Source: Legionella cardiaca
GTDB taxonomy: Bacteria > Pseudomonadota > Gammaproteobacteria > Legionellales > Legionellaceae
DNA: 64,000 bases
Direction of reading: 5' to 3'
NCBI RefSeq assembly: GCF_029026145.1
Contig: NZ_CP119078.1
Location: 1 to 64,000 of the forward strand
The notes beneath the pieces were generated by a model. That model was not told where the DNA came from. It searched no databases and worked only from the letters and a program-made list of their open reading frames with translations. Made by a program: the position numbers and the translations under genes. This document shows, one piece after another, positions 50,936-57,708 of this stretch (positions are counted from its first letter, which is position 1; every line of letters begins with the position of its first letter).

Positions 50936-51358
50936 ATGACGGACAGAAGTGTCGTATATTTTGCAAGACTGCATTGGATTTTATTTTTCTGGCCCTTAGC
51001 GCTTGCATGTTTTGCCATTTTTTTAGGTACACAAATTAACCAATTAAAAGAAGTGTCACTCATGTTTCTTGGTGTTGCTTTTATTTGGATATTAATGACC
51101 TGGGTAACCTACCATTTTTCATCACTTACCATTAAACAAAAACAGGTAATACTTCGTACAGGAATGTTGGTTAGACAAACAGTTGATATTCCTCTTTCTA
51201 AAATAGAGAGCATTGATATTCGTCAATCAATTTTGGGTAGTATTTTTCGCTATGGCTCATTGGTAATTACAGGCACTGGTGGCACGCGTCATGTTATGAA
51301 TTTTCTCGATAAACCGCTAACCTGTCGACGCTATATCGAACAGCTTATGCATGAGTAA
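50936..51358 (+). CDS. Membrane protein with bacterial PH domain (DUF304/bPH2-like)
   Basis: 140 residues. Two hydrophobic segments (about 13-33 and 40-58), then a beta-rich bPH domain with YHFSSLTIKQKQVILRTG and IPLSKIESIDIRQSILGSIFRYGSLVITGTGG. Function of such proteins is mostly unknown. It overlaps the next gene by 8 bp. Confidence 0.83.
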   Translation: MTDRSVVYFARLHWILFFWPLALACFAIFLGTQINQLKEVSLMFLGVAFIWILMTWVTYHFSSLTIKQKQVILRTGMLVRQTVDIPLSKIESIDIRQSILGSIFRYGSLVITGTGGTRHVMNFLDKPLTCRRYIEQLMHE

Positions 51359-52241
51359 TGAACATTGGTCCAGGTTGTTTTTTAAGCAACCTATTATTGC
51401 AATTTCTCCTTTAAAAGGTGGGCGTCAACACCAGACTGATTTAATTGAACTCACAGATGGTAGCAAATGGGTTTGTAAAAAACTCACTGGCAGTACCTGG
51501 CTTGGGATAATGAATTCTGCACAATTTAGGTTTACCGAGGTAATTGCAACACATGTCGCCAATAAAACAGGCTATACTTATGCGCCAAAAACCCTTCCTA
51601 TTCCAAAACGGTGGGTAGAAGGTACACAAACTCATTTACTCATTACTCCTTATTGTAAAGGTAAATTAAGAGCGACAGTTACGCAGGAACAAGCATTTTT
51701 ACTAGGAAAATTGCTGGCAAAATTGCATCAATTAAATTTGCCAAAGAAAGGAGGACAGGCTTTTCCATGTATTAATTTACCTGAGAATCAATCTTATTCA
51801 CCTGAAGTTAAATTGCTTGTTGAGCAATCTAATGCTTCCTTGCAATATGACAGTCAAAACTGGGTTGTTAGCCATCGAGATATCCATTTAGAAAATATTG
51901 TATGGAAGGATGCAGAAAAGCCGCATTTAATTGATTGGGAGAGTGCAGGACTGATTCATCCCTTTGTCGAATTAATTGGTGTGGCTATGAACAGCTCTGG
52001 CCTGGCAGTAAAAAAGTTCGAAAAGAATCTCTTTCGTGCTACTTTAAGAGGCTATGCGCAGATTATGGGTAATTTACCACAAGCAAACGAGCACTTATGG
52101 GGCCTGATTTTTCATAGCTGGCTTCTCTGGTATGCCTACAGTCTCAGAAGAAACTGGCAAGAAGATGCCGAGCAAACCTTGCAAGTCATTAAGCTTATTA
52201 AACTGAAAATGAAAGAATTACAGCATCTCTATGCTGATTAA
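51351..52241 (+). CDS. Kinase-fold phosphotransferase (APH family), 3' end altered by island
   Basis: 296 residues. Aminoglycoside-phosphotransferase/choline-kinase-like fold: HRDIHLEN at 175-182 and LIDWE around Asp195. True substrate is unknown. The 3' part (52007-52222) is repeated perfectly at 56410-56625. Joining 51351-52006 to 56410-56656 gives an in-frame 300-residue product ending KELQLLYTEFNLI, probably the original gene; the present gene ends KELQHLYAD. The catalytic part is untouched, so it should still work. Confidence 0.85.
   Translation: MSNEHWSRLFFKQPIIAISPLKGGRQHQTDLIELTDGSKWVCKKLTGSTWLGIMNSAQFRFTEVIATHVANKTGYTYAPKTLPIPKRWVEGTQTHLLITPYCKGKLRATVTQEQAFLLGKLLAKLHQLNLPKKGGQAFPCINLPENQSYSPEVKLLVEQSNASLQYDSQNWVVSHRDIHLENIVWKDAEKPHLIDWESAGLIHPFVELIGVAMNSSGLAVKKFEKNLFRATLRGYAQIMGNLPQANEHLWGLIFHSWLLWYAYSLRRNWQEDAEQTLQVIKLIKLKMKELQHLYAD
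52007..52222 (+). repeat. 216-bp perfect direct repeat, left copy
   Basis: Identical base for base to 56410-56625. It is the 3' part of the phosphotransferase gene. Beyond its right end the two loci diverge, though TTAACYTTATCTAAAGT is shared a few bases later (52251-52267 and 56643-56659). Confidence 0.97.
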
Positions 52242-52478
52242 GACTATTTTTTAACTTTATCTAAAGTTTGATAAAAAAAAGAATTAGATAAAATTAAATA
52301 TTTTAGAAAACACACAGTAAAAAAATTTGAACTTGAATATTAGGTACATGTAAACAAAGCTAAATAGGGGAAAATAGTAATAAAATTATAAAAGGGTAAT
52401 CTGAAATAACATTCCCATTTTAAAATGGTGAGACATTATTAGCCTTCCATTAAGTAAGCAATCTTAAATATAATTTTA

Positions 52479-53759
52479 TTAGTTTAGTTTTATCATTTTA
52501 TTGTCATGTGCATACTTAAACCACATAGTAACGAAAGAAAAAATCACCAAAATGATGACTACTAATGGAGGGGAGATCGAACTTTGTGTTTTTCTCAAAA
52601 GCATTAGAGATAATAAGGGGGTTAAACCTGCAGAAATGCTTGCTGCAGTTGAATATAATAAAGATAAAACTGTACAGCGCAAATTGAAAGGAAACATCTC
52701 TGCCAACATCACTGGCACAGTGGCATAATAAGCTCCTGCCGGAATTGATATCAGTGCTTGTATTAAAATAAACTGATTATAAGTTCCATAGGATAGCAGA
52801 TAAAAAAATGGTTGAAGTAGCAACAAAAAACCAACGATTGCAGCAACAATAATTCCTTCTCGCTTTACTTTGTCAGATAATTTTCCAAAAATAGGAAAAA
52901 CACACAATAAAACCATTAATGAAATAATATTAGATTTAATAATCTGGTAGTCTGTAAAATTTCCATAGATATGAGCTTGTGTTGGACCATAGATATATAT
53001 CTGAAACGTTGTAGCAACCCCTAAGCTACTTAATGCAAATACATATAAACATTTCGATTTATATTTAAATAAATATTGTAAAGACTGATTGCATAAATTT
53101 TTGAGTTTTGGCCTAGTATTATTTGCATAATAATTTATATATTCTTTGCTTTCCGGGATAAACATTCGTATATATAAGCCTATAGAAGAACCTAATAAGG
53201 CTAGAATAAAAGGAATGCGCCATATAGCCCATCCTAATTCAGGGTAGCACTCTATTAAGTAGGTGATTATTAATGAAAATAGAGATGCAACTAACAGGCC
53301 TGCCATTGTCCCGAATGAGGCCCAACTACCTGAATAACCCTTATTGGATGTTTCGGCATTTTCTATAAGATAAGCTGAGGAATTAAGATATTCGGCACCA
53401 CAAGAAAAGCTCTGAATAATACGCAATATCAAAAGACATGCTATTGAAGCAATACCAATTGAATTGCTAGAGGGAATAAAACCGATTAAAGTTGTAGAGA
53501 TTCCCATGCTAAGTATAGAAGCTGCAAGAGTAATTTTTCGCCCATAAATATCGGAAAATAAACCCATAAATATTGCGCCAATAGGTCTTGCTAAATAACC
53601 AGCAAAGAAAGTGGCGAATACGATGAGTAACCCCTTGGTGACATCTCCAATCAAATATTTGGCCAGATAAACCGATAGTAGTCCACATAAGGCCAAATCA
53701 AAAGCCTCAACAAGGTTTCCTAGCATTCCAGCAACAAGGATACGTGTTTGATGCTTCAT
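52479..53759 (-). CDS. MFS transporter, MHS (ProP/ShiA)-like
   Basis: 426 residues, 12 membrane segments. MHS-type features: GNLVEAFDLALCGLLSVYLAKY at the start, FFAGYLARPIGAIFMGLFSDIYGRK as the loop 2/3 motif, and LRIIQSFSCGAEY in place of the usual GGE. Family members carry small organic acids or betaines by proton symport; export is less common. It is last in the island operon; its ATG overlaps the deformylase stop (TAATG). Confidence 0.85.
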   Translation of the reverse strand: MKHQTRILVAGMLGNLVEAFDLALCGLLSVYLAKYLIGDVTKGLLIVFATFFAGYLARPIGAIFMGLFSDIYGRKITLAASILSMGISTTLIGFIPSSNSIGIASIACLLILRIIQSFSCGAEYLNSSAYLIENAETSNKGYSGSWASFGTMAGLLVASLFSLIITYLIECYPELGWAIWRIPFILALLGSSIGLYIRMFIPESKEYINYYANNTRPKLKNLCNQSLQYLFKYKSKCLYVFALSSLGVATTFQIYIYGPTQAHIYGNFTDYQIIKSNIISLMVLLCVFPIFGKLSDKVKREGIIVAAIVGFLLLLQPFFYLLSYGTYNQFILIQALISIPAGAYYATVPVMLAEMFPFNLRCTVLSLLYSTAASISAGLTPLLSLMLLRKTQSSISPPLVVIILVIFSFVTMWFKYAHDNKMIKLN

Positions 53760-54283
53760 TACAATTCCAGCCTTTTTTGTAATTCAGTTGCTGTAATTAA
53801 GCTGTCATGGTTTGCAATATGATCAAAAAATAAAAATCCATCCAAATGATCTACTTCATGCTGAAGTATACGTGCTTCAAGCCCGCTTGCACGTTTTTTA
53901 ATAAAATTTCCATTGAGGTCAAAGCCAGAGTATTCGATCTCCATTGCTCTGGGAACCTCTCCTCTTAACTCACCTGTATTTAAGCAACCTTCATAGCCAG
54001 TTTGTATTTCTTCAGATAAATTTTTTACGGTTGGATTAATTAATACCGTGTCAGGAATGTGCTCATCAATTTTTCTTGTTTTAGTATAAGTAGTTCCAAA
54101 AACAATGATTCTTTTACTAATACCAATTTGTGGAGCAGCGATGCCTACAGCACCCTTATCTTTCATAATTTCAATCATATCTATAATAAGGCTTTTTAGC
54201 CAAGCAGAACCAAAATCTGACCTAGAAACGGGCTCGGCTTTTTCTCTTAATATAGGATTGTCTTGTTTAAGTATTATTCTCAT
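53759..54283 (-). CDS. def: Peptide deformylase, island-borne
   Basis: 174 residues, normal length. Motifs: GAVGIAAPQ at 44-52, EGCLN at 98-102 with metal-ligand Cys100, and HEVDH at 142-146. Motif II normally reads EGCLS; here Asn replaces Ser. Metal ligands and catalytic Glu are intact, so activity is expected. It is the second deformylase paralogue in the window and again has no fmt neighbour. It overlaps the upstream gene by 17 bp and the MFS gene by one. Confidence 0.9.
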   Translation of the reverse strand: MRIILKQDNPILREKAEPVSRSDFGSAWLKSLIIDMIEIMKDKGAVGIAAPQIGISKRIIVFGTTYTKTRKIDEHIPDTVLINPTVKNLSEEIQTGYEGCLNTGELRGEVPRAMEIEYSGFDLNGNFIKKRASGLEARILQHEVDHLDGFLFFDHIANHDSLITATELQKRLEL

Positions 54284-54854
54284 AATTCACCTGGTTATTT
54301 ATAATGAGTTTTAAAGTCGGTTTATGCGCAATGAAAGTTTGTTGTTTTTCTGGTAAGGGAATGGTTTTGATTATGTTCCGTAAACAGAATTGTCCCATAT
54401 TTATGAGGGTATCGAGATTAGTTAACAATCTACTTTTTGTAACTTTATCGCTTGTTTTTAATGCAAAAGAATAGACTACACGGTATTCAGCAAACCGAGC
54501 GGGAATTGCAATACCTATGCTGAATTTTTGTGCTTCTAATTTATAATGACGTAAACGATTTTCTTTTGTTTTTGGGTAAAGCTCCTCCCAATATTGTGCT
54601 TGATCTTGTTGAATGAACTTATCATGATAACTTTTATCTAACTGCCATAAATTATGCTCGATGAGATTACACTCAATGGAAGGATGAGAAGATAAAAAGA
54701 ATAATTCATTTTTTGGATTTATTAACGCTATTGCCAGGTAATCAATTTCCAACAGGCCAATTACGTCACTAAATATCCTTTTGACTGTTCTGTAATGCTC
54801 AAAGAGAAAGTCTTTCGCCTGTGGGTGAAGGGTGATTGAAGGGTTAACATCCAT
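54267..54854 (-). CDS. Sensor-only protein resembling LuxR autoinducer-binding domain
   Basis: 195 residues without a helix-turn-helix. The order of elements (EIDYLAIALINPKNELFFLSS, then HNLWQLDKSYHDKF, then SIGIAIPARFAEYRVVYSFAL) parallels the N-terminal part of the LuxR-type protein at 55611-56414. It may bind a ligand or antagonise that regulator. Similarity is judged by eye and is weak. Lies 10 bp after the XRE gene and overlaps def. Confidence 0.5.
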   Translation of the reverse strand: MDVNPSITLHPQAKDFLFEHYRTVKRIFSDVIGLLEIDYLAIALINPKNELFFLSSHPSIECNLIEHNLWQLDKSYHDKFIQQDQAQYWEELYPKTKENRLRHYKLEAQKFSIGIAIPARFAEYRVVYSFALKTSDKVTKSRLLTNLDTLINMGQFCLRNIIKTIPLPEKQQTFIAHKPTLKLIINNQVNYENNT

Positions 54855-54864
54855 TTATTATATT

Positions 54865-55359
54865 CTACTTATTGCATGACATTTTCCGATATTTTTCTTC
54901 ATAAGAAGAAATTGAATCTATTGCCAAGTTAATGATTTTTTCTAGATTTTCTTTCGAAGTGTCTATCTGGCGAACATCTCGTATTAATCCTAACACAAAG
55001 TCAGCATAATCGTCAGTATTTCCTGTTTCTTCTCTGTATAAATGATGGCTCTTCTTAAGAATATAATGTAGTAAATCGTCATCAATAAGCTGGGTTTGAT
55101 GTGATTCACTTCTTTCTTGTTCACCGAATAACAACCATCCGGCAGTTACATTTAACTCTCTAGCTATATTTAGGATTCTTGCATAATCAGGTAGAGCATC
55201 TCCACGAATATAACGCCGACATATTTGTTCAGATACTCCAGCAAATTTAGAAAGGGTTTGAATGCAAATACCACTAGGCGATCTTGATGCTATGTGCCCT
55301 CTTAATTTCATAATCTCAATTAGCCTATGTGAAAATTCTTTGTACTTACCAATTCCCAT
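54865..55359 (-). CDS. XRE-family transcriptional regulator
   Basis: 164 residues. An N-terminal Cro/CI-type helix-turn-helix at about 30-70 (CIQTLSKFAGVSEQICRRYIRGDALPDYARILNIARELNVTAGWLLFG) is followed by a helical C-terminus. The closing NVTAGWLLFGE is typical of phage-repressor-like regulators. It heads the four-gene minus-strand operon and probably controls it and the divergent luxR-type gene. Confidence 0.87.
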   Translation of the reverse strand: MGIGKYKEFSHRLIEIMKLRGHIASRSPSGICIQTLSKFAGVSEQICRRYIRGDALPDYARILNIARELNVTAGWLLFGEQERSESHQTQLIDDDLLHYILKKSHHLYREETGNTDDYADFVLGLIRDVRQIDTSKENLEKIINLAIDSISSYEEKYRKMSCNK

Positions 55360-55610
55360 AACGAATTCCTACCATGATTTAGGATGAAGAAGTTAACACA
55401 TAAATTATTAGCATTCAAAATTATATTTTTTATATTAAATAATCTTAAATTATTGGATTTATAATGATAATTGTTTCTTGTTGTTAATTTAAGTTTCGTT
55501 ATTGAGTGTTTTTTGATAACATTCCCAAATTAATATTTATTATTCAATGCATTGCTCGAGAATGCGCTGTCTTTGGTTGTATTGCTATTATTTTTATATA
55601 AGAAAGGAAA
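55360..55610. promoter_or_regulatory. Divergent control region in the island
   Basis: 251 bp of very AT-rich DNA between the XRE and LuxR genes. It holds a short inverted repeat AATAAT-N5-ATTATT (55438-55454) and ATAACATTCCCA at 55516, which recurs at 52406. Promoters for both directions must lie here. Confidence 0.45.
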
Positions 55611-56414
55611 ATGGAATTTATGAACAATATTTCTAATACCTTGAGTTTAGCCTGTAAGAAGCAAATTGATGAAGTTTGTAAACCAATGGCAAATATAGAT
55701 CTTAAGTACCTTGTAATGTATCTCATTTTTAATGATGGTAGATTATTGATTCTTTCTAATATACCTCCTCTTGTTCAACGATATTATCAGGAAAATTTAT
55801 ATAAACAGGATTATAGCTATACCTATAAAATGATTGAGGCGGCATATGAAGGTTATTATTTATGTAATGAAGTAGAGTTTTCCTCCCCTGAGTTTAAAAA
55901 AATCCTAAAAGAAAAATATAATATTTATCCTATCTATAATATAGTTAGACGATGTGCTGAATGTACTTTTGTTTTTAGTGCTATCCGTGGTGCTCCAGTT
56001 AAATCTGATCAACTTTTTTACAAAAAAACGATTAGGTCCTTTGAAAATTTTTGTGCTAATTTTGTTGATGCATTTCTTGAGGTGATTATTTATCGCCATC
56101 CTAAATATAGATACTCCTTTATTTTGACAAACCAAACATATCGTCATGCAATAATAAAAGGCGGCTATGCCGAGAGTGAAACAATCTCAATGAGAGAGCA
56201 AGAATGCTTATGGCTTTCTGCACAAGGTAAAACTGTGAAACAAATTGCACAAATTCTTAAAATAAGCCCCTACACAGTTGAAAAATATTTAAAAAATATT
56301 CGTGAAGCATTTAATTGTCATACCTTGATTGAAGCTGTCATCGAGGGAATTCATAGAGGAATGATAGGTAGGGTTAATATAAATAAAAAAATCATTAGTT
56401 CTGATACTAAGTAA
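55611..56414 (+). CDS. LuxR-family transcriptional regulator
   Basis: 267 residues. The C-terminal LuxR helix-turn-helix is at about 193-250 (SMREQECLWLSAQGKTVKQIAQILKISPYTVEKYLKNI). The N-terminal 170 residues are a sensor-like domain without recognisable residues for acyl-homoserine lactone binding. AAGGAAA precedes the ATG. The last codon and stop fall inside the right direct repeat, so the gene's original end may have been replaced. No luxI is in view. Confidence 0.87.
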   Translation: MEFMNNISNTLSLACKKQIDEVCKPMANIDLKYLVMYLIFNDGRLLILSNIPPLVQRYYQENLYKQDYSYTYKMIEAAYEGYYLCNEVEFSSPEFKKILKEKYNIYPIYNIVRRCAECTFVFSAIRGAPVKSDQLFYKKTIRSFENFCANFVDAFLEVIIYRHPKYRYSFILTNQTYRHAIIKGGYAESETISMREQECLWLSAQGKTVKQIAQILKISPYTVEKYLKNIREAFNCHTLIEAVIEGIHRGMIGRVNINKKIISSDTK

Positions 56415-56625
56415 AAAAGTTCGAAAAGAATCTCTTTCGTGCTACTTTAAGAGGCTATGCGCAGATTATGGGTAATTTACCACAAGCAAACGAGCACTTA
56501 TGGGGCCTGATTTTTCATAGCTGGCTTCTCTGGTATGCCTACAGTCTCAGAAGAAACTGGCAAGAAGATGCCGAGCAAACCTTGCAAGTCATTAAGCTTA
56601 TTAAACTGAAAATGAAAGAATTACA
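56410..56625 (+). repeat. 216-bp perfect direct repeat, right copy
   Basis: Identical to 52007-52222. It forms the right border of the island and supplies the stop codon of the LuxR-family gene. Confidence 0.97.
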
Positions 56626-56656
56626 ACTGCTCTATACGGAATTTAACCTTATCTAA
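56410..56656 (+). pseudogene. Orphaned 3' end of the phosphotransferase gene
   Basis: Encodes the last 80 or so residues of the phosphotransferase in frame to a TAA at 56654, but lacks the catalytic part and a start signal. It is probably the original 3' end, because it abuts ltaE directly, separated from its gene by the island. Confidence 0.85.
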
Positions 56657-56667
56657 AGTGACTTACT

Positions 56668-57708
56668 ATGAAAAAGATTGATTTGCGCAGTGATACGATG
56701 ACAAAGCCTGATAAAGGCATGTTGCAGGCAATGATTCATGCTGAAGTTGGAGATGATGTCTGGAATGAAGATCCAACTGTTAGACGCCTGGAAGAAATGA
56801 TAGCCGACAAGGCTGGTATGGAAGCAGCCGTATTTGCACCCTCTGGAACACAATCTAATTTAATGGGACTTATGGCACATTGTGAGCGTGGTGACGAATA
56901 CATTGTTGGTCAAACCGCTCATACCTATCGTTGGGAAGGGGGCGGGGCTGCTGTCTTGGGAAGTATCCAACCGCAGCCTATTGATTTTTCTGACGATGGT
57001 AGTCTTCCTTTGGATAAAGTGGCATTAATGATTAAACCTATCGATGATCATCATCCCCGTACTAAATTGTTATGTCTCGAAAATACAACAAATGGTAAGG
57101 TGTTACCCCTTGATTATCTTAAAACCATACCTCAATTTTGTCGTGAACATCGGATTGCCAGCCATTTAGATGGTGCTCGAGTTTTTAATGCTGCAGTTAA
57201 ATTAGGCGTTCCTTTAGAAACGATTAGCAGGAATTTTGATTCTATTTCCATTTGTTTATCAAAAGGATTAGGTACACCAGTCGGTTCTGTACTTTGTGGC
57301 AGTAGTGAATTAATTAAGCGTGCGAGACGTTGGCGTAAAGTGTTGGGTGGAGGTATGAGACAAGCCGGGATTTTAGCAGCTGCAGGCATTTATGCGTTGG
57401 AAAATAACGTAGAGCGTTTAAGGGAGGATCATGAAAATGCTTTTTACCTTGCTAGCGGCTTAACAGAGTTTAATAGCATTGAAGTGGACCAGCAATCACT
57501 GCAAACAAATATTTTATGGGTTAAATTTAAACATCGCTATAGCGAATTACAAATCTATCTCCAGCAAAAGGGCATTTTATTCCCTCTGGCAAATTCACAA
57601 GGGACAGTAAGACTTGTTACTCATCTTGATGTTACAAGAAATGATATAACTCTTACTCTGGAGACAATTAAAAATTTTTACAAAAGTATCAGCTTCAATA
57701 ATTCCTAA
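56668..57708 (+). CDS. ltaE: Low-specificity L-threonine aldolase
   Basis: 346 residues. PLP enzyme cleaving L-threonine or L-allo-threonine to glycine and acetaldehyde. It starts IDLRSDTMTKP, has GDDVWNEDPTVRRLE, APSGTQSNL and HLDGARVFNA, and the PLP-binding Lys is in CLSKGLGTPVGS. Start follows the pseudogene by 11 bp; before the island arrived it was probably co-transcribed with the phosphotransferase gene. Confidence 0.95.
   Translation: MKKIDLRSDTMTKPDKGMLQAMIHAEVGDDVWNEDPTVRRLEEMIADKAGMEAAVFAPSGTQSNLMGLMAHCERGDEYIVGQTAHTYRWEGGGAAVLGSIQPQPIDFSDDGSLPLDKVALMIKPIDDHHPRTKLLCLENTTNGKVLPLDYLKTIPQFCREHRIASHLDGARVFNAAVKLGVPLETISRNFDSISICLSKGLGTPVGSVLCGSSELIKRARRWRKVLGGGMRQAGILAAAGIYALENNVERLREDHENAFYLASGLTEFNSIEVDQQSLQTNILWVKFKHRYSELQIYLQQKGILFPLANSQGTVRLVTHLDVTRNDITLTLETIKNFYKSISFNNS

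What the first reader, a model, noticed from the sequence alone, without database searches (positions are those of the whole stretch)
52007..56656. Island inserted in a phosphotransferase gene, bounded by a perfect 216-bp direct repeat
52007-52222 and 56410-56625 are identical, and the right copy continues the gene in frame to a natural end next to ltaE. The left copy ends in a related but different tail (TTAACTTTATCTAAAGT versus TTAACCTTATCTAAAGT just after). Such a long identical repeat with no integrase points to a recent entry by homologous recombination of a molecule that carried a diverged copy of the gene's 3' end. The repeats should also allow precise loss of the island, restoring a 300-residue protein.
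Basis: partly seen in the sequence, partly recalled or inferred. Interest (0 to 1): 0.8.

Follow-up and report, generated by a model that had tools for sequence, protein, structure and literature searches.

The report
Island that duplicated a gene's end
In a Legionella-type bacterium, a small gene island without a visible recombinase gene sits between two copies of the end of a neighbouring gene, and some related islands in sister species show the same kind of scar, which suggests that they enter genomes through ordinary DNA similarity instead of their own cutting-and-pasting enzyme.

Summary
Positions 52007-52222 and 56410-56625 are identical, the only such pair in the window and in the genome. 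The phosphotransferase gene is not interrupted: the left copy is a complete 296-codon gene with a different tail; the right copy is a truncated remnant running on to the native tail beside ltaE. All 17 differing alignment columns lie in the last 45 of 261, a sharp switch. In 13 of 15 relatives holding the gene it abuts ltaE, so the island is derived. No integrase was found. The island is a chimera: a repressor/deformylase/transporter module that at 13 of 13 intact loci examined elsewhere lies beside AlpA, joined to a LuxR-type gene that is 12-15 codons shorter than its close relatives at the repeat junction. At 4 of 8 sites of this LuxR subfamily (window included) a piece of the left flank is duplicated beyond LuxR; 4 sites lack it. 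Repeat lengths (83 bp to about 2.2 kb of flank) and offsets vary, so no fixed att site or target duplication fits. Best explanation: insertion-duplication by one-ended homology, probably a circularised fragment and single crossover. Recency is unproven: gene conversion could also keep the copies identical.

The parts
51351..52241 (+). APH-fold phosphotransferase gene, complete (296 aa), last codons of the second (donor-like) type
   Evidence: Pfam PF01636; the three NCBIfam models that match stay far below their cut-offs
52007..52222 (+). left copy of the perfect 216-bp repeat
52223..52267 (+). diverged tail on the left copy; similarity to the native APH-ltaE interval stops here
52268..52478 (.). 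A+T-rich spacer, left end of the island (tail plus spacer 52223-52478: 22.7% G+C)
52479..53759 (-). MFS transporter (metabolite:H+ symporter type)
53759..54283 (-). peptide deformylase
54267..54854 (-). 195-aa protein without Pfam match; possible distant relative of the LuxR N-terminal domain
54865..55359 (-). XRE repressor, weakly RstR-like
55419..55600 (.). interval where DNA similarity to the AlpA-type module islands ends (55418) and similarity to LuxR cassettes begins (55601): chimera point
55611..56414 (+). LuxR/GerE-type regulator, 267 aa, lacking the last 12-15 residues of its close relatives; stop codon lies inside the repeat
56409..56410 (.). right junction, LuxR 3' end joined to the phosphotransferase gene
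56410..56625 (+). right copy of the 216-bp repeat (gene remnant)
56626..56659 (+). native tail of the phosphotransferase gene and start of the native interval before ltaE
56668..57708 (+). ltaE, native right flank

Best explanation
The island entered by insertion-duplication through one-ended homology, without a recombinase of its own. A DNA fragment carried the 3' end of the phosphotransferase gene with a diverged tail, then the module, then LuxR. Its LuxR end was joined non-homologously to phosphotransferase sequence at the point now seen as 56409/56410, which probably cut off the end of LuxR. The molecule was taken in by RecA-type pairing within the gene's 3' end. The likeliest form is a fragment closed into a circle and integrated by a single crossover; a closely similar form is homology-facilitated illegitimate recombination with duplication. 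The result is a complete gene with the donor tail on the left and a truncated copy with the native tail on the right. Shown: the repeat, the two-phase tail, the short LuxR that ends inside the repeat, the empty site in relatives, no integrase found, and similar flank duplications at three other LuxR-island sites. Inferred: the donor, the circle or the one-ended joint, uptake by transformation or conjugation, that LuxR was cut by the event, and that the event is recent.
For: Perfect identity of 216 bp with an abrupt change to a diverged tail. Empty site APH-ltaE in 13 of 15 relatives that hold the gene. LuxR 12-15 residues shorter than its close relatives. No integrase- or AlpA-like sequence in the window by tblastn with two Legionellaceae integrases and one AlpA at E 1e-4, and none among the ten proteins of the island and its flanks scanned with Pfam. 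Flank duplications of variable length and offset at 4 of 8 sites of the close LuxR subfamily: window, G002 purE site, G008, G007. Among 321 mechanically listed ORFs in 44 fetched stretches, 8 show such a repeat: 6 of the 10 close LuxR genes and 2 of 311 others, both genes of the two islands at the G002 purE site; two of the six LuxR positives are second copies in tandem arrays whose repeat is the LuxR gene itself. Laboratory precedent: in E. coli conjugation with a plasmid cut to leave one homologous end, 56 of 60 clones carried a partial duplication of the target (109-950 bp in the 14 sequenced), ascribed to single crossover of a circular molecule that had lost part of the homologous segment (PMC3240628, passages read). 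The genome encodes ComEC and DprA.
Against: No donor molecule or second strain of the species was available. Published homology-facilitated illegitimate recombination generally deletes recipient DNA. A circle from a diverged donor should leave differences inside the 216 bp, so the donor must have been nearly identical there, or both copies are recipient DNA. Microhomology at the joint cannot be measured without the intact donor LuxR, and the short LuxR could be native. Four of 8 close LuxR sites (L091, L093, L096, L098) show no such duplication, nor do the 11 loci of more distant LuxR relatives (one of them, L101, has only 1 kb of left flank). Two of the three supporting sites are weak: G007 contains a dispersed REP-like core and G008 a short intergenic repeat.
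Confidence: 0.55

Rival explanations
1. Old insertion-duplication kept identical by gene conversion: the island is not recent; the two gene copies 4.4 kb apart have been homogenised up to 52222, beyond which the older divergence shows.
For: In two tandem relatives the LuxR copies differ less than the flank copies: 4 substitutions in 968 columns against 7 in 186 (Fisher P 5e-4) and 4 in 917 against 8 in 171 (P 9e-5). A conversion tract would also give the abrupt switch.
Against: The right copy is a remnant free to decay, and the comparable remnant in the purE locus has decayed (91-96%, with deletions); here it is perfect. Selection on LuxR can explain part of its low divergence.
Confidence: 0.22
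2. Tandem duplication of a pre-existing gene-island-LuxR unit, followed by loss of the second island by recombination with an island-free allele.
For: Tandem units with different cargo exist in G002 and G007; transformation-driven tandem duplication is documented in pneumococcus (PMC3784515, passages read).
Against: Needs an extra loss step here; only one close LuxR copy is in the genome, its other matches being weak.
Confidence: 0.12
3. Site-specific integration at the gene's 3' end by an integrase acting in trans; the repeat is the attachment site.
For: The element supplies a replacement 3' end, as integrase elements in gene ends do (recalled); the module elsewhere lies in AlpA-bearing islands, 6 of 13 with an integrase in the fetched stretch.
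Against: No integrase in the window; the repeat is 216 bp with a further diverged part; related islands have flank repeats of other lengths and unrelated sequence; the right end lies inside LuxR here but about 70-200 bp beyond it elsewhere.
Confidence: 0.05
4. Assembly artefact.
For: None direct; reads were not available.
Against: Single contig, completeness 100, different tails on the two copies, and similar structures in the assemblies of other species.
Confidence: 0.03

Closest known systems
Insertion-duplication by single crossover of a circular molecule that lost part of its homologous segment (E. coli lacZ system, PMC3240628, passages read)
   Same: One-ended homology; partial duplication of the end of a gene (109-950 bp there, 216-250 bp here)
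   Different: Laboratory construct there; here a natural island, seen only in its final state
Homology-facilitated illegitimate recombination, as proposed for V. cholerae T6SS effector-immunity arrays (PMC5361080, passages read)
   Same: Conserved upstream stretch as anchor, non-homologous far end, arrays of successive insertions without evidence of an integrase
   Different: Generally deletion of recipient DNA; here duplication; cargo unrelated
Integrase-borne Legionella genomic islands and ICEs (PMC3218107, passages read; L. adelaidensis NZ_LR134418)
   Same: The XRE-195aa-deformylase-MFS module (seen in the L. adelaidensis ICE region and 12 further loci)
   Different: No integrase, AlpA or conjugation gene here; a LuxR-type gene stands in the place of AlpA
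LuxR-type solo regulators
   Same: GerE helix-turn-helix at the C-terminus
   Different: The N-terminal part matches no Pfam family at E 0.001, and no solved structure matches that part by sequence

Membership tests
Integrase-mediated genomic island in a gene 3' end | integrase gene in or next to the island | tested here: not met
Integrase-mediated genomic island in a gene 3' end | attachment core of fixed length shared by related elements | tested here: not met
   flank repeats from 83 bp to about 2.2 kb of left flank, unrelated sequences
Integrase-mediated genomic island in a gene 3' end | element supplies the gene's 3' end | tested here: met
Transposon or insertion sequence | transposase and short target duplication of fixed length | tested here: not met
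   no transposase family among the island proteins; variable repeats
Insertion-duplication by single crossover | direct repeats of the homologous segment at both ends, one copy truncated at the join | tested here: met
Insertion-duplication by single crossover | circular donor carrying the gene's 3' end | not testable with these tools
   no such donor among plasmid records at the sensitivity used; other strains of the species are not held
Homology-facilitated illegitimate recombination | 3-10 bp microhomology at the illegitimate joint | tested here: inconclusive
   sequences at the joint seen, but the intact donor LuxR is unknown
Homology-facilitated illegitimate recombination | deletion of recipient DNA at the joint | tested here: not met
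   duplication instead
Quorum-sensing LuxR solo | GerE DNA-binding domain | tested here: met
Quorum-sensing LuxR solo | autoinducer-binding domain | tested here: inconclusive
   no Pfam match for the N-terminal part; the structure prediction could not be run

The most novel reading that the evidence does not exclude
LuxR-tailed accessory islands of Legionella and kin form a recombinase-free family of mobile cassettes. They pick up the end of the gene next to them, re-enter by one-ended homology at that gene or at the LuxR gene of a resident island, leave a growing scar of host-gene duplicates behind the LuxR end, and exchange cargo in tandem arrays.
Probability: 0.2. Interest if true: 0.75.

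Novelty: new variant of a known kind. Interest (0 to 1): 0.5.

Why it matters
How an island without an integrase got in can seldom be read from sequence. Here the scar (perfect duplication, donor-like tail, short regulator ending in the repeat) and its recurrence at some LuxR-tailed islands in sister species make the question testable by comparing strains. If true, ordinary recombination plus a shared regulator gene can act as a mobility system for exchangeable cargo.

Tried and rejected
Integrase or att model: disfavoured by variable repeat lengths and absence of an integrase. Transposition: no transposase family among the island proteins and no fixed target duplication. Plasmid or phage origin: LuxR finds no phage record and only distant plasmid relatives, best 48%; island DNA finds one plasmid record, L. 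adelaidensis, at 68.5% over 57% of the query, covering the module without LuxR; two viral-contig scans found no relative. Donor of the left tail: in 22 genomes nothing beyond short matches (best 21 bp, E 0.0015), apart from the native copy in the same genome. The empty-site check for G007 failed: its left-flank gene has no relative among the 22 genus genomes; the check for the G008 LuxR site was inconclusive. The flank repeat of G007 contains a REP-like core (my label) with 23 matches in that genome; the full 170 bp is confined to two places, so that case is weaker. The G008 case is a short intergenic repeat and also weaker. Strings printed for loci on the minus strand were in the wrong orientation and were replaced; the two translated lines at the end are out of frame and were not used. 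An earlier count said 12 of 13 for AlpA; the output shows 13 of 13. Structure prediction of the LuxR family was tried four times and never accepted, so nothing rests on it. Literature searches that listed nothing on this island type: (library of open papers only); two searches gave listings of LuxR-solo and Legionella papers, of which PMC3218107 and PMC11472951 were looked into by passages.
Full report
What was claimed and what is there. The two 216-bp copies are identical and stand at the stated coordinates. They are the only such pair in the window and the only two matches in the 3,477,232-bp genome. The phosphotransferase gene (PF01636) is complete on the left, 51351-52241, 296 codons. The right copy is a remnant that begins at the end of a LuxR-type gene and runs in frame to a stop ending at 56656, 11 bases before ltaE. 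Over the full homologous stretch of 261 columns, all 17 differing columns lie in the last 45, so the boundary at 52222/52223 is a real switch and not chance.

The island is the derived state. Of 22 genus genomes searched (own included), 15 relatives hold a strong match to the phosphotransferase gene; the other six have none or only weak matches. The order dciA, bPH-domain gene, phosphotransferase is kept in 15 of 15, and ltaE follows directly in 13 of 15. The two exceptions are G002, where no ltaE is found in the 12-kb stretch, and G020, where only about 1.5 kb of flank was held. None of the 13 has an island there.

What the island is made of. It holds an MFS transporter, a peptide deformylase, a 195-aa protein and an XRE repressor on the minus strand, and a LuxR/GerE-type gene on the plus strand. 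Relatives of the 195-aa protein occur in 90 of 143 family genomes. Fifteen loci, taken mostly from the top of that list, were fetched: 13 carry the whole module (one cut by a contig end), at 59-71% (XRE), 43-56% (195 aa), 61-68% (deformylase) and 65-74% (MFS) amino-acid identity; two, L121 and L135, are incomplete or altered. In 13 of these 13 an AlpA-type gene lies beside XRE (one of them is the source of the AlpA query), and in 6 a tyrosine integrase lies within the fetched stretch (two of them the query sources). Two of those six also hold restriction-modification genes. One of the 13 lies in an ICE region of L. adelaidensis NZ_LR134418. The window has no such AlpA or integrase. DNA similarity to the module islands runs to 55418 and similarity to LuxR cassettes starts at 55601, so the island is a chimera of two element types. 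The LuxR-linked modules of G002 and of L. adelaidensis NZ_LR134433 carry a different, distant subfamily of the same four genes (MFS about 35%).

The LuxR end is short. Its seven close relatives in the alignment end 12-15 residues later, and an F-A-R/K-P stretch in that missing part is shared by 8 of the 11 aligned relatives. In the window the gene stops inside the repeat, the stop codon being supplied by phosphotransferase sequence. That the event cut it is inferred.

The same kind of scar elsewhere. The close LuxR subfamily (64-72% identity) has 10 full copies at 8 sites. Four sites show a duplicated piece of the left flank beyond the LuxR end. In the window it is 216 bp identical plus the tail. 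At the purE site of G002 it is a degraded copy of 2157 bp of left flank (purD-purN-purE and 165 bp beyond), now 860 bp, pieces in order, 91-96%, followed by a second island whose LuxR is 99.5% identical to the first. In G008 it is 83 bp at 97.6%, the only two copies in that genome. In G007 it is 170 bp at 94.7%, with tandem units of different cargo and near-identical LuxR; it contains a core that is dispersed in that genome, so this case is weaker. Four sites (L091, L093, L096, L098) show none, also with a permissive search (best 64% over 69 bp, E 0.006), and neither do 11 loci of more distant LuxR relatives (L101 with only 1 kb of left flank). As a control, 321 mechanically listed ORFs of 150 codons or more in 44 fetched stretches were tested for a direct repeat of at least 80 bp and 90% between the stretch from 60 bp before to 320 bp after the stop and up to 13 kb upstream. 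Eight were positive: 6 of the 10 close LuxR genes and 2 of 311 others, among them 10 distant LuxR genes. The 2 are genes of the two islands at the G002 purE site, and two of the 6 are second tandem copies whose repeat is the LuxR gene itself. The stretches were chosen around LuxR, module and flank genes and some overlap, so this is not a genome-wide rate.

History at one site. The purE site is occupied twice in G002. In G008, whose PurE is 98% identical, only a 3' scrap of LuxR (68 bp matched at 84%) remains after purE. In G001 and G010 neighbouring genes follow purE without an island. In the window's genome the flank genes were not found in the stretch fetched, and the other genomes with purE (18 of 22 have a match) were not examined. 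The simplest reading is that these islands come and go, and that the loss in G008 was not a clean recombination between flank repeats.

Mechanism. Flank repeats of unrelated sequence and variable length, with LuxR-end offsets from inside the gene to about 200 bp beyond it, do not fit a site-specific recombinase or a transposase. They fit insertion-duplication through one-ended homology. In an E. coli study, 56 of 60 clones expected to be illegitimate events instead carried partial duplications of the target (109-950 bp in 14 sequenced), ascribed to single crossover of a circular molecule that had lost part of the homologous segment, while homology-facilitated illegitimate recombination generally deletes recipient DNA (PMC3240628, passages read). 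Homology-facilitated illegitimate recombination was proposed for arrays of T6SS immunity genes in V. cholerae (PMC5361080, passages read), and transformation-driven tandem duplication is shown in pneumococcus (PMC3784515, passages read). High recombination and natural competence of L. pneumophila are described in PMC3218107, and its transformation rates in PMC11472951 (passages read). The genome here encodes ComEC and DprA above the curated cut-offs, which makes uptake plausible but does not show it.

What stays open. Identity of the repeat need not mean recency: in G002 and G007 the LuxR copies differ less than the flank copies, which points to gene conversion, in part to selection, or to both. 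The donor is unknown: the left tail has no relative beyond short matches in 22 genomes other than the native copy. What the island does for the cell is inferred only from gene families: a transporter and an extra deformylase beside two regulators. The 195-aa protein and the LuxR N-terminal part may be distantly related (hhalign probability 51%); this is a lead, not a result.

Verdict. The gene is not disrupted, the island is a chimera with a short LuxR, and the scar type recurs at some related islands. This is a new variant of a known kind of event, of moderate interest.

Noticed in passing
L092:5152-14768 (G002 purE site): Two LuxR-tailed islands in tandem with different cargo, separated by a decayed copy of purD-purN-purE; LuxR copies 99.5% identical.
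   Followed up: partly
L168 (G008, reverse strand, after purE): A 3' scrap of the LuxR gene remains beside purE, probably a scar of a lost island.
   Followed up: yes
L122-L134, module loci: The XRE-195aa-deformylase-MFS module lies beside AlpA in 13 of 13 intact loci, with tyrosine integrases in 6 of the fetched stretches and restriction-modification genes in two: apparently a standard part of a Legionellaceae island family.
   Followed up: partly
window:54267-54854: The 195-aa protein has no Pfam match; a relative in L. adelaidensis is annotated as flagellar protein FlgJ, for which no support was seen here; a weak profile match to the LuxR N-terminal domain exists.
   Followed up: partly
L097:9134-9374, L092:14702-14800, L168 after purE: Sequences of a CGGGAATGA type (REP-like, my label) lie just beyond the LuxR stop in G007, G002 and G008, near the joints.
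   Followed up: no
L097:5291-13540: G007 tandem units carry asparaginase or methyltransferase genes, one with a Vut_1 transporter, beside near-identical LuxR genes.
   Followed up: no
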